In this document: piece by piece, positions 53,877 to 62,604 of the stretch | How the letters are laid out: each line of letters starts with the position of its first letter | Position numbering within the stretch: position 1 is the first letter of the stretch | NCBI RefSeq assembly: GCF_000189755.2 | Contig: NZ_KI912183.1 | Span: 238,366 to 302,365, forward strand | DNA from: Desulfotomaculum nigrificans DSM 574 | GTDB lineage: Bacteria > Bacillota > Desulfotomaculia > Desulfotomaculales > Desulfotomaculaceae | Direction of reading: 5' to 3' | Length of the DNA: 64,000 nt | Position numbers and translations under genes: made by a program | Notes under the pieces: generated by a model | Database searches by the model: none | What the model was told of the DNA's origin: nothing | What the model saw: only the letters and a program-made list of their open reading frames with translations

Positions 53877-54653
53877 ATGATCGGGGTCAGGGGGAGTGAC
53901 CGGATCTTGACTTTAGAACAGTATACAACACAGTACCTGAAACAGGCTCAAAAGGGTGATGATGGGGCCAGGGAAATCATTTTATCCGAGGCCAAATCAT
54001 TTATTCAAAAAACAGCGGTTAATTTTTGTGCCAGGCCTTTAGAATGGGGACTGGATGATGAATTGAGTATTGCCTTAATGGCCTTTAATGAGGCCATTGA
54101 CCGTTACCAAGATAATAGGAACATACCGTTTCTGGGCTTTGCCCGTTTAGTGATAAAAAGCAGGTTGTCAGACCATTTTCGCAAGGAAGCCCGCCATAAA
54201 CACCAGCCTTTAGAATACCAAACAGCGGATAATTCAACAATTCAGTTGGAGACCGAACAGGCCTGGGAAAATTATTTACGTGAGGCGGAAGCTCGTGAAC
54301 GCCAGGAAGAAGTAGTGGAATTTCAGAGGGAGTTATCCCAATACGGCATAAGTGTCAGCGATTTGGTTGAAGCCTCACCCAAGCACAAGGATGCAAGGGA
54401 AAATCTCATTGCCGTGGCTAAACAAGTGGTTGATCGGCCGGATTTAATAGAACAGTTAATCCGTACCAAACGATTGCCGATCAAAGAATTGGATCAAATT
54501 TGCGGACTGCACCGCAAAACATTGGAGAAGGGGCGACGCTATATCATTGCCATGGCCTTGTTACTCCATTATAAGGAACGGTTCATTTATTTATATTCTT
54601 ACTTAAGGTTAACCGGTTGGTCCTGTGGGGAGGAGGGAAGTAACTGTGGTTAA
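53877..54653 (+). CDS. sigI: RNA polymerase sigma-I factor
   Basis: A 258-residue sigma factor of the SigI type. The region-2-like block WGLDDELSIALMAFNEAIDR with YQDNRNIPFLGFARLVIKSR is typical, and the C-terminal helix-turn-helix reads LPIKELDQICGLHRKTLEKG. In Bacillus SigI answers heat and envelope stress; in cellulolytic clostridia its paralogues answer polysaccharide. The start is uncertain: ATG 53877 sits too close to GGGGGG, and TTG 53907 after GGGGGAG is possible. rsgI overlaps its end. Confidence 0.9.
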   Translation: MIGVRGSDRILTLEQYTTQYLKQAQKGDDGAREIILSEAKSFIQKTAVNFCARPLEWGLDDELSIALMAFNEAIDRYQDNRNIPFLGFARLVIKSRLSDHFRKEARHKHQPLEYQTADNSTIQLETEQAWENYLREAEARERQEEVVEFQRELSQYGISVSDLVEASPKHKDARENLIAVAKQVVDRPDLIEQLIRTKRLPIKELDQICGLHRKTLEKGRRYIIAMALLLHYKERFIYLYSYLRLTGWSCGEEGSNCG

Positions 54654-55749
54654 AGGATTGTTAATCCGGTCTAAAGGCCCGCTGGGTGTGGTGATGACCC
54701 AGGACGGCAGATTTGTGCGAGTTTTGTTAACCGGTGGTAACCGGGCCCTGGGGCAAGAAGTTATGGGCCGTGAGTTACATTTTCCCTCTATGACGCGGGG
54801 ATTGGCCGTGGCTTCTCTGTTACTTGTGATCATGATCGGGGTATGGGCCAAAATAATGTCTGTACCGGCCGCAGCGGCCTATGTTGCCCTGGATATCAAC
54901 CCCAGTGTTGAACTGACTGTTGATCAGGTTGGCCAAGTGATTCAGTGCCGGGGGTTGGATGATGACGGACAAAAATTGCTAAAACAAGTGGTTTTAGATA
55001 AAGTGGAAATTTACCGGGCGTTAGATTTGTTAGTACAAGGGGCAGTTCAACAGCATTACTTAAATGAAATCAATAACGTAGTACTGGCCACGGTCACCCC
55101 GATCAAAGAATATTCCGTGGTGGATGAAGAAAAACTTAAGGATTCGGTGAGTCAAGCAGTAACCGGCTTACCTGTGTCGGTTAAAATTATTACCGAGGTA
55201 GCTACGCCGCAGGAACGTCAGCAGGCTACGGACAAAGGGATCTCCGTGGGAAGATATTTAATCTACCAGGGAAGTACTCGTCAGGGTGCACCCTTAACCA
55301 TCGAAGATGTAAAAAACAAAGGCTTGGGTCAGTTGGAAAAGGAAAAAGGGTGGCAAATTGAACAGGTTTTACCCCATGCCAGGTATAATATCCGGGCGAA
55401 GCACCAGCCGGGTAAAGGAGATAACAATGAGACGTCCGATAAACAAAAGTTACTAAATAAGGTTCCGCCGGGACAAGTAAAAAAAGAACAACCGCATTTG
55501 CCACCGGGTAAGCAAACTAATCCAGCCATGGAGTCAGGGAAACAGGTGATTGAAGAAAAACAACAGATGATTAAAGATAAGGATGAAAAAGCTGATGAAA
55601 TAACAAGCGAGCGACGGGTAGACCGTCACCAAAGCCAGTTAAACCAAAATAAAAATGAAAATAAGGATACGCCGGATGACCATCTCAAAAAAGATAGTCC
55701 GGGCCTGGATAAAAAGCCTACCCCAAATCATGGGCATGACAAAAAATAA
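54646..55749 (+). CDS. rsgI: Anti-sigma-I factor RsgI
   Basis: A 367-residue single-pass protein. Residues 1-50 are the RsgI N-terminal domain that binds SigI; residues 52-75 are the membrane helix (ASLLLVIMIGVWAKIM); then the conserved AAAAYVALDINPSVELTVD periplasmic domain that is autocleaved in studied homologues. From residue 245 the tail is a Lys/Gln/Asp-rich, low-complexity extension with no carbohydrate-binding module, unlike clostridial cellulosome RsgI proteins. GTG 54646 follows GGAGGAGGGA and overlaps sigI. Confidence 0.9.
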   Translation: MVKGLLIRSKGPLGVVMTQDGRFVRVLLTGGNRALGQEVMGRELHFPSMTRGLAVASLLLVIMIGVWAKIMSVPAAAAYVALDINPSVELTVDQVGQVIQCRGLDDDGQKLLKQVVLDKVEIYRALDLLVQGAVQQHYLNEINNVVLATVTPIKEYSVVDEEKLKDSVSQAVTGLPVSVKIITEVATPQERQQATDKGISVGRYLIYQGSTRQGAPLTIEDVKNKGLGQLEKEKGWQIEQVLPHARYNIRAKHQPGKGDNNETSDKQKLLNKVPPGQVKKEQPHLPPGKQTNPAMESGKQVIEEKQQMIKDKDEKADEITSERRVDRHQSQLNQNKNENKDTPDDHLKKDSPGLDKKPTPNHGHDKK

Positions 55750-55801: not shown

Positions 55802-56770
55802 TTACATCCATTTGCGCTGGCGAAAGATGACCACCATCCAAATAGAAACGGTAATTAAGCCAATGGTAATACTAATGGTCGACCATATTGAGTTTTGGTC
55901 CGGTAGCGGGACATTCATCCCAAAAAATCCGGTGACAAAGGTTAACGGCATAAAGATGGTAGAAATCACGGTTAAAACCCGCATGGTTTCGTTGGTACGG
56001 GCACTAATAATTGAGGAGTAGGTAGCCAGGGCACCATCCACCAGGTCCTTGTAACCGTCAATTGAGTCAGTTATGCGTTCCAGGTGGTCTACCAAATCTA
56101 GATAATAAGGCTCGTTATCTTCAGAAATTTTAAAGGAACTGTTGCTAATATTAGAAAATATCCTGTGCTGGGGAGCGATACCCCGTCGCATAGTTAAAAT
56201 GGTTCGCCTTAGGGCTAAGAATTCATCGGTGGTTTCTTTACTGGGCTTTTCATAAATCTCGTCTTCCAGGTCTTCAATACGATCACCGATGCGGTCAAGT
56301 ACCGGGAAATACTCATCAATTAGGCCGTCAATAATGGAGTACAGAAAAAAGTCCGGTCCTTTATCAGTTAAAGCCGTATCACAAAGGCAAACCTTGGCCA
56401 TTTTGCCCAGGCTGGGGAGAGTGTTTTTATGCACGGTGACTACATAATTTTCCCCCAGAAATACTCCCAGCTGAACCAGCATAATTTCTTCGTCTCGCTC
56501 TTCATTGTAGCGGATAGCATGCATGACCAGAAAGTGATAATCATCATATTTATCTAACTTAGCCCGGGGGCTGTAATGGGTACAGTCCTCAACTGCCAAT
56601 TCGTGAAAGTCAAAAACTTTGGCCACATATTTAATTTCTTGCTCAGTAAAATTATATAGATCAACCCAGAGCAGATTGTTTTTATCTAACAGCACTGTCT
56701 GCAGATTGTCCAGATTTATGTCATGGCGCATTTTTCCCTGCGTATGATCATAAAGGTACGTCTTAATCAT
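55802..56770 (-). CDS. corA: Magnesium/cobalt transporter CorA
   Basis: A 322-residue CorA channel. The soluble funnel domain comes first; two C-terminal transmembrane helices follow, the first ending in the GMN selectivity motif (FVTGFFGMNVPLP), the second near residues 290-315, then a basic tail RQRKWM. ATG at 56770 follows GGAGGTG. It is preceded by an M-box magnesium riboswitch, so expression should fall when magnesium is plentiful. Confidence 0.96.
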   Translation of the reverse strand: MIKTYLYDHTQGKMRHDINLDNLQTVLLDKNNLLWVDLYNFTEQEIKYVAKVFDFHELAVEDCTHYSPRAKLDKYDDYHFLVMHAIRYNEERDEEIMLVQLGVFLGENYVVTVHKNTLPSLGKMAKVCLCDTALTDKGPDFFLYSIIDGLIDEYFPVLDRIGDRIEDLEDEIYEKPSKETTDEFLALRRTILTMRRGIAPQHRIFSNISNSSFKISEDNEPYYLDLVDHLERITDSIDGYKDLVDGALATYSSIISARTNETMRVLTVISTIFMPLTFVTGFFGMNVPLPDQNSIWSTISITIGLITVSIWMVVIFRQRKWM

Positions 56771-56899
56771 GGGAACACCTCCAGTGTGGCAAAACTATGG
56801 CTACAAGGGTAGTCTTACCGGGTAAGAATGAATTAAACAATATTTATCTTTAGCCGCCGGATAAGGATCATCCATTCTTACCACCTCCCACTGGAAAAT

Positions 56900-57117
56900 A
56901 AAAAAACCTTCTTCAAAGAAGGTCAAAGATAGATACCCAGGTTAAGGGCACCTGGCCTTCTCCACTCGTGCAAGCTTTGGCACATACATAGCTAGGGCAC
57001 TTGTCCCAGCCACATTAGGTATAACCTTAAGCCGGTAGAACCTGTTAACCCGTTAGCGTCTCTCGACATTTCCGGGCAGTGGCATTTGTCTATGCAGAAG
57101 CCTCACCTAACGAAGCT
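56900..57117 (-). promoter_or_regulatory. M-box (ykoK) magnesium riboswitch
   Basis: Read on the minus strand, the RNA opens CTTCGTTAGGTGAGGC, then GCATAGACAAATGCCACTGCC and later GCTGGGACAAGTGCCC, the conserved core of the M-box. It ends in a terminator, ACCTTCT/AGAAGGT (56906-56923) followed by seven U. The corA start is 130 bases further. High magnesium should favour termination. Confidence 0.92.
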
Positions 57118-57135
57118 AAATATTAACCTAAATAA

Positions 57136-60128: not shown

Positions 60129-60196
60129 GTCTACATGGTTGGTAAGTTCTATTCCTTCAAATAATAATAACGTTAATACCTTTAGGGGTGAACCGA

Positions 60197-60658
60197 ATGA
60201 TAGAATTTCCACCGGAAGTTTATTTTAGAGTTATATTTTCTGTATTTGTCGGTACCGTATTGGGATTGGAAAGAACAGTTTATAATAAACCAGCCGGTGT
60301 ACGGACATTTTCATTAGTATGCTTAGGGTCCACCTTAATCATGATTGTGTCTATTAATGGCGCGCAGTTTTTAGGGATTAAACCGCCCCCGGATCCTTTA
60401 CGGGTTGCAGCGCAAATTGTAACTGGCATTGGTTTCATTGGTGCAGGGGTTATTTGGAATAGTGAAAACGGGGTAAAACACGGCATAACCACCGCTGCAG
60501 AACTATGGGTGGTTTCGGCCATAGGAATGGCTTTAGGATTAGGACTTTATGATCTTGTTTTACTGGTAATACTTTGCGTATATATGGCTATATTTTTTGG
60601 ACGTAAACTTGATAGTTTATTCCGCAAAGGTAAGGGTGAATTAGACGGAGATTCATAG
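60197..60658 (+). CDS. MgtC/SapB family membrane protein
   Basis: A 153-residue protein with four to five hydrophobic segments and the MgtC signatures VLGLERTVYNKPAGVRTFSLVCLGS, split here as GLERTVYNKPAGVRT and FSLVCLGS, plus GIGFIGAGVIW and GITTAAELWVVSAIGMALG. Family members act in magnesium limitation and virulence or modulate ATP synthase. It lacks the C-terminal ACT-like domain of the Salmonella protein. ATG 60197 is preferred over GTG 60188, which lies inside AGGGGTGA. Confidence 0.9.
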   Translation: MIEFPPEVYFRVIFSVFVGTVLGLERTVYNKPAGVRTFSLVCLGSTLIMIVSINGAQFLGIKPPPDPLRVAAQIVTGIGFIGAGVIWNSENGVKHGITTAAELWVVSAIGMALGLGLYDLVLLVILCVYMAIFFGRKLDSLFRKGKGELDGDS

Positions 60659-60737
60659 CACCCGCTTTTTCAATATTTTTCATTCTTTAATATTGAGTAA
60701 CAGTGCTTTTTTAAATGTATTTGTTTAACTATAAAAA

Positions 60738-60775
60738 AAATCCCTGTAGAGTTTTGAACTGCACCACAGGGATTT
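60738..60775. terminator. Bidirectional terminator between mgtC and the tRNA
   Basis: AAATCCCTGT (60738-60747) pairs with ACAGGGATTT (60766-60775). A and T runs on each side suit both mgtC and the minus-strand tRNA. Confidence 0.8.
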
Positions 60776-60802
60776 TTCTATATAAAACCATGTTGCCATC
60801 AC

Positions 60803-60899
60803 TGGAGGGGAGTAGTCGGAATCGAACCGGACTCCAACCTGGGTCACAGGCCGGCTCGTGGGTTTGCAGCCCACAGGGGGAACCATCCCCGTACTCCCC
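60803..60899 (-). tRNA. tRNASec-shaped tRNA with GCA (Cys) anticodon
   Basis: A 94-base tRNA plus encoded CCA. The acceptor stem has eight pairs (GGGGAGTA with TACTCCCC), the D arm is five pairs with a four-base loop, and the anticodon stem GTGGG/CCCAC holds loop CTGCAAA, anticodon GCA. An eight-pair variable arm (CCGGCCTG with CAGGTTGG) follows. The T loop TTCGATT sits on a five-pair stem with one bulged C. The discriminator is U. The 8+5 acceptor/T helix and long variable arm are those of bacterial tRNASec, while GCA and U73 are tRNACys identity elements. Its charging is unknown: CysRS, SerRS or the selenocysteine route. Confidence 0.82.
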
Positions 60900-61000
60900 A
60901 GAATTATTTTAGCACATAAAATGTTATATTAGGTATGAAAATTAGTGATGTTTAAATTACTACTATAACCATCGTTTATGCTTAACATCATCCAAACTTA

Positions 61001-61041
61001 AAACAAAAAAGCTTCAAGCAATTACAATTGCTTGAAGCTTT
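61001..61041 (-). terminator. Terminator of tRNA-Leu
   Basis: A perfect 15-pair hairpin (61008-61022 with 61027-61041, four-base loop) followed on the minus strand by TTTTTT. Confidence 0.88.
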
Positions 61042-61050
61042 AATTAACTG

Positions 61051-61139
61051 TGGTGCCGAAGGTGGGAGTCGAACCCACACGAGGGGTGAACCTCGCTGGA
61101 TTTTGAGTCCAGTGCGTCTGCCAGTTCCGCCACTTCGGC
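61051..61139 (-). tRNA. tRNA-Leu (CAA)
   Basis: An 86-base class II tRNA plus encoded CCA. Acceptor GCCGAAG/CTTCGGC, discriminator A, anticodon stem CTGGA/TCCAG with loop CTCAAAA (anticodon CAA, reading UUG), a short variable arm and T loop TTCGACT. TTG is a frequent start and leucine codon in this window. Confidence 0.96.

Positions 61140-61283: not shown

Positions 61284-62604
<1,321 letters not shown>

What the first reader, a model, noticed from the sequence alone, without database searches (positions are those of the whole stretch)
60803..60899. tRNASec-architecture tRNA carrying a cysteine anticodon and discriminator
Seen: an 8-bp acceptor stem, a 4-base D loop, an 8-bp variable arm and encoded CCA, typical of tRNASec, but anticodon GCA and U at the discriminator, both cysteine identity elements. 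The T stem has a bulged C. Known: SerRS reads long variable arms, CysRS reads GCA and U73. Inference: the tRNA could place Ser, Cys or Sec at UGC/UGU codons, or serve a non-translational role. I recall published surveys reporting tRNASec variants with Cys anticodons in some bacteria, so the class may be known, but the combination deserves a close look.
Basis: partly seen in the sequence, partly recalled or inferred. Interest (0 to 1): 0.87.

Follow-up and report, generated by a model that had tools for sequence, protein, structure and literature searches.

The report
Cysteine tRNA built like selenocysteine tRNA
This is an intact gene for a known kind of hybrid tRNA that has the body of a selenocysteine tRNA but the labels of a cysteine tRNA; published work on a species of the same bacterial group says such a tRNA lets the cell put cysteine where selenocysteine is encoded, so it is remarkable biology but not a new discovery.

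Summary
It passes the Rfam tRNASec threshold. It is not a degenerate selC: the genome also has a canonical tRNASec(UCA), selA-selB, one cysS, a normal tRNACys and a second gene of the same kind. Homologues covary strongly. A pattern scan of named genomes found 104 tRNA-like sequences with GCA and a long variable arm; all 74 with encoded CCA have U73. The genes go with selB: 22/22 carriers in a phylum sample against 66% of all genomes, and 45/50 carriers from several phyla.

The class is known. It is the selC* tRNACys of Mukai et al. 2017. A 2024 review, citing Vargas-Rodriguez et al. [quoted passage not shown] I think this gene does the same. Additions are modest: a second copy that ARAGORN misses, a 5-bp T stem with bulged C, and divergent copies in relatives. 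Charging and decoding cannot be tested in silico.

The parts
60803..60899 (-). tRNASec-like tRNACys(GCA) gene (selC* type) with encoded CCA, U73, 8-bp acceptor, 8-bp variable arm and a T stem of five pairs with one bulged C
   Evidence: ARAGORN, Rfam RF01852 49.8 bits, covariation in 40 homologues, exact sequence
60906..60914 (-). Extended -10-like motif TGC-TAAAAT about 6 nt upstream of the tRNA; possible own promoter (inference, no clear -35)
   Evidence: read from the sequence; not found by the consensus scan
60733..60778 (-). Probable intrinsic terminator downstream of the tRNA: long hairpin AAAATCCCTGT...ACAGGGATTTTTTTT followed by a run of U
   Evidence: fold of 60725-60802 (-): -23.1 kcal/mol, z -3.4; loop too large for the consensus scan
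61008..61041 (-). Terminator-like hairpin of the upstream tRNALeu; suggests that the hybrid tRNA is a separate transcription unit
   Evidence: 15-pair stem with T tail
61051..61139 (-). Upstream neighbour tRNALeu(CAA); ordinary, not part of the mechanism
   Evidence: ARAGORN, RF00005 58.5 bits

Best explanation
The gene encodes a selC*-type tRNACys. Steps and their status: (1) CysRS charges it with cysteine through GCA and U73 (inferred from identity elements). (2) The tRNASec-like body, with 8-bp acceptor, short D loop and long variable arm, is recognised by SelB rather than EF-Tu (reported for the D. nigrificans tRNA; inferred here). (3) SelB brings it to Sec UGA codons marked by a SECIS element, where the GCA anticodon reads UGA and inserts Cys in place of Sec (Cys at Sec UGA codons is reported for the D. 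nigrificans tRNA; a G34:A mismatch at the wobble position follows from the sequences). (4) The likely benefit is a cysteine version of selenoproteins when selenium or Sec-tRNASec is short (inference). The genome keeps a canonical tRNASec(UCA) for normal Sec insertion.
For: tRNASec architecture with GCA and U73, under selection. U73 in 74/74 homologues with encoded CCA. Canonical tRNASec, selA, selB and one canonical cysS in the same genome. Co-occurrence with selB: 22/22 carriers in a phylum sample against 263/398 of all genomes, Fisher p 8e-5; 45/50 carriers from several phyla. Literature: PMC11415595 for Cys at Sec UGA codons with SelB; PMC7609411 for the class.
Against: Nothing on charging, SelB binding, expression or UGA decoding was measured for this gene. 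The primary paper could not be read. selB co-occurrence could partly reflect descent from selC inside Sec-using lineages, and related genomes are not independent. A GCA anticodon can also read UGC/UGU. Some homologues have C33, A33 or ACA.
Confidence: 0.85

Rival explanations
1. Minor ordinary cysteine isoacceptor: charged by CysRS, carried by EF-Tu and reading UGC/UGU like any tRNACys, with the unusual body as historical baggage.
For: GCA and U73 are the ordinary cysteine identity elements; GCA pairs normally with UGC/UGU.
Against: An ordinary tRNACys is present in this genome and in 92 of 100 relatives. Carriers nearly always have selB, which an ordinary isoacceptor would not need. The review reports that the D. 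[quoted passage not shown]
Confidence: 0.08
2. A tRNASec with changed anticodon: charged with Ser by SerRS, converted by SelA, placing Sec at UGC/UGU codons, as reported for a GCA tRNASec of Aeromonas salmonicida.
For: tRNASec-like D arm, acceptor and variable arm; the review cites an A. salmonicida tRNASec with GCA that translates targeted UGC codons with Sec.
Against: U73 where this order's canonical tRNASec genes have G73; U73 in 74/74 homologues with encoded CCA; a canonical tRNASec(UCA) is present.
Confidence: 0.03
3. Decaying selC duplicate or non-translational RNA, with no role in decoding.
For: Some relatives have variants with C33 or A33, altered D arms and one truncated copy; a degenerate partial tRNASec copy lies near selC.
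Against: Compensatory changes across 40 homologues, invariant U73 and CCA in that alignment, and a probable terminator of its own indicate selection on a whole tRNA.
Confidence: 0.04

Closest known systems
tRNASec-like tRNACys(GCA) of Desulfotomaculum nigrificans (Vargas-Rodriguez et al. 2018, PMID 29879865; named tRNAReC as I recall)
   Same: Same bacterial group; tRNASec-like structure with GCA anticodon; selB in the genome. Reported to decode Sec UGA codons with Cys through SelB (PMC11415595).
   Different: Its sequence could not be read here, so identity with this gene is unknown; function of this gene untested.
selC* tRNACys (Mukai et al. 2017, PMID 28076288, as described in PMC7609411)
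   Same: tRNASec-like body, U73, GCA, 8-bp acceptor, bulged T stem; Firmicutes among the listed phyla.
   Different: Described as a 4-bp T stem with a bulged A51a; here five T-stem pairs and a bulged C. No second selB or dedicated cysS here.
Canonical bacterial tRNASec (selC)
   Same: 8-bp acceptor region, 4-nt D loop, long variable arm; passes the Rfam model.
   Different: GCA instead of UCA, U73 instead of G73; about 60% identical to this genome's own tRNASec.
Ordinary class I tRNACys
   Same: GCA anticodon and U73.
   Different: 8-bp acceptor and long variable arm; about 50% identical to this genome's tRNACys.

Membership tests
selC* tRNACys (tRNASec-like tRNACys) | tRNASec-like body: 8-bp acceptor, short D loop, long variable arm | tested here: met
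   RF01852 49.8 bits, above gathering score; 8-bp acceptor 99.7% paired in 40 homologues
selC* tRNACys (tRNASec-like tRNACys) | Cysteine identity elements GCA and U73 | tested here: met
   read directly; U73 in 74/74 homologues with encoded CCA
selC* tRNACys (tRNASec-like tRNACys) | Modified 8/4 branch with one bulged nucleotide in the T stem (published as A51a) | tested here: inconclusive
   8-bp acceptor and a single bulge at the corresponding place, but C instead of A and five T-stem pairs instead of four. Congeners L063, L065 and L066 have A there. The review says the bulge was dispensable.
selC* tRNACys (tRNASec-like tRNACys) | Occurs beside a canonical tRNASec and SelB | tested here: met
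   tRNASec(UCA) 69 bits; selB 400 bits and selA 624 bits
selC* tRNACys (tRNASec-like tRNACys) | Charged by CysRS, delivered by SelB, Cys at UGA | not testable with these tools
   only reported for D. nigrificans in a review
Canonical tRNASec | UCA anticodon (or another Sec-assigned one) and G73 for SerRS/SelA | tested here: not met
   GCA and U73; the 15 tRNASec of relatives read in full have UCA and G73
Ordinary tRNACys | Class I body with short variable loop and 7-bp acceptor | tested here: not met
   8-bp acceptor, 8-bp variable arm
allo-tRNA | 12-bp acceptor branch with SerRS identity elements | tested here: not met
   13 pairs plus a bulge (8 + 5), with Cys-type U73 and GCA; definition from PMC7609411

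The most novel reading that the evidence does not exclude
The multi-copy sets in this order have diversified: besides standard GCA copies, some genomes keep copies with anticodon ACA or with C33 or A33, so some copies may have left Cys-at-UGA recoding for another role, such as selected sense codons, regulation, or a cysteine donor outside translation.
Probability: 0.08. Interest if true: 0.55.

Novelty: already known. Interest (0 to 1): 0.3.

Why it matters
If the published mechanism holds here, the organism has a built-in way to make cysteine versions of selenoproteins, using SelB and a codon-anticodon mismatch, so UGA has two programmed meanings in one cell. The co-occurrence with selB across phyla suggests that this backup is widespread among Sec-using bacteria. 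The strict U73 conservation gives a simple rule for telling these genes from real tRNASec in annotation, where ARAGORN names them plain tRNA-Cys or misses them.

Tried and rejected
(1) Sole tRNACys in some genome: G036 (listed 100% complete) gave no ordinary tRNACys even at E 10, but in the loci checked its tRNAPhe, tRNAAsp and tRNAIle are missing too and a tRNAGly lies at a contig start, so this looks like an assembly gap. (2) Separating selC* from selB inside the order: not informative, 96 of 100 have selB over cut-off; a phylum sample was used instead. (3) Phage-borne copies: none of the 24 IMG/VR pattern hits looks like this tRNA. SelB relatives in viral contigs: none. (4) A second, dedicated cysS: one hit over cut-off per genome in 11 genomes. 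(5) Single-sequence folding does not give the full cloverleaf for either copy, so the structure rests on covariation. (7) The primary papers are not held; reviews were used.

Full report
Observation. The minus strand of 60803-60899 carries the tRNA exactly as described. ARAGORN calls tRNA-Cys(gca) at the same coordinates, and Rfam assigns it to tRNA-Sec (49.8 bits, gathering score 47) and not to the general tRNA family. With an explicit structure on 40 homologues, 94.4% of cells pair and 20 of 32 pairs show changes on both sides, against 8.3 in shuffles (0/500); the acceptor is 99.7% and the T stem 100% paired around one unpaired column. Single-sequence folding is not decisive.

The gene unit. 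A tRNALeu(CAA) lies upstream on the same strand, but a terminator-like hairpin separates the two (61008-61041). A TGC-TAAAAT motif sits about 6 nt before the tRNA (read from the sequence), and a strong hairpin with a U run follows it (z -3.4). It is probably transcribed on its own (inference).

The genome. G000 (3.05 Mb, one contig) has a canonical tRNASec(UCA) at 69 bits, selA at 624 bits and selB at 400 bits side by side, a single cysS over cut-off, one sound tRNACys and a degenerate copy of it, and a second hybrid tRNA at 365596-365691, 82% identical, which ARAGORN misses. Its genus includes records named Desulforamulus aeronauticus and D. putei (matching contig lengths).

Distribution. BLASTN finds the gene in 48 of 100 relatives, some with two or three copies; a few of the weakest hits are partial. 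All 74 with encoded CCA have U73; among the 30 without it, my fit gives U73 in 20. The geometry varies: 34 fit 8/5 without a bulge, 30 fit 8/5 with a bulge (this gene's type) and 25 fit 8/4 with a bulge, the last being the form the review describes. Carriers include records titled Bacillota, Deltaproteobacteria, Thermodesulfobacteria, Nitrospirae, Actinobacteria, Acidobacteria and Planctomycetota; the fits for the last two groups, which mostly lack encoded CCA, are less certain.

Link with the Sec machinery. Of 50 carrier genomes reached through these loci, 45 have selB over the curated cut-off, and one more has a partial copy at a contig edge. In a sample of 398 genomes of the phylum, 24 match the pattern; two matches (G476, G280) I set aside as not tRNA by reading the matched stretches. 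All remaining 22 have selB, against 263 of 398 overall (Fisher p = 8e-5). Related genomes are not independent; the 22 fall in 13 families, and 0.66^13 is 0.0045. All 16 relatives searched have a top RF01852 hit at 61-75 bits; the 15 I could read in full have UCA and G73.

Mechanism. GCA and U73 predict charging by CysRS; the body predicts handling by SelB. [quoted passage not shown] 2018. Review PMC7609411 describes the class as selC* tRNACys in Firmicutes, Thermodesulfobacteria, Nitrospirae and Proteobacteria, with U73, GCA and a bulged T stem. From memory, the 2018 paper named these tRNAReC, described a UCA, Sec-inserting derivative in Pelotomaculum as tRNAReU, and proposed a safeguard for selenoprotein production; I could not open it. 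Two relatives carry such UCA versions of the same body with G73 and A73 (L099, L100), and each genome also has a separate, better-scoring tRNASec hit.

Verdict. A sound observation and a functional-looking gene, but of a class described in 2017 and studied in 2018 in a species of the same group. The additions are modest: a second copy that ARAGORN misses, the C bulge with five T-stem pairs, the selB association across phyla, and variants with ACA, C33 or A33 in relatives. Whether the two primary papers already contain these points I could not check.

Noticed in passing
L005:1501-1596 (G000:C1:365596-365691, +): Second hybrid tRNA(GCA) of the genome, 82% identical, missed by ARAGORN, directly upstream of tRNALys(CTT); several relatives show the same neighbour.
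   Followed up: partly
L083, L091, L106, L105, L092, L101: Copies in relatives with C33 (three), A33 (one) or anticodon ACA (two), although U33 is near-universal in elongator tRNAs.
   Followed up: partly
L099:1580-1675 (-), L100:1501-1596 (+): UCA-anticodon tRNAs with the same body and bulged T stem but G73 and A73, 80-81% identical to the window tRNA; probably the published Sec-inserting derivative.
   Followed up: partly
L001 about 2281-2356: Degenerate partial second copy of tRNASec about 700 bases from the intact selC, with IstB-like transposition genes on the other side.
   Followed up: no
L049:217-288 (-): Degenerate tRNACys copy without CCA, in what looks like a duplicated Phe-Gly-Cys tRNA cluster.
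   Followed up: no
L133, L182 and other GACGGTCA-type sequences: GCA/U73 long-arm tRNAs with a different acceptor sequence in Sulfobacillus and other Bacillota MAGs, with 8/5 or 9/4 geometry and no bulge.
   Followed up: partly
window 55802-57121 (-) and 60188-60658 (+): M-box (Mg2+) riboswitch at 56954-57121 ahead of a CorA gene, with an MgtC family gene nearby.
   Followed up: no
window 53877-55749 (+): Sigma factor gene overlapping an RsgI-like anti-sigma gene.
   Followed up: no
window 61815-62489 (-): Transposase-like ORF with an HTH_38 domain close to the tRNAs; similar coding sequence seems to continue downstream in another frame, so it is probably broken.
   Followed up: no
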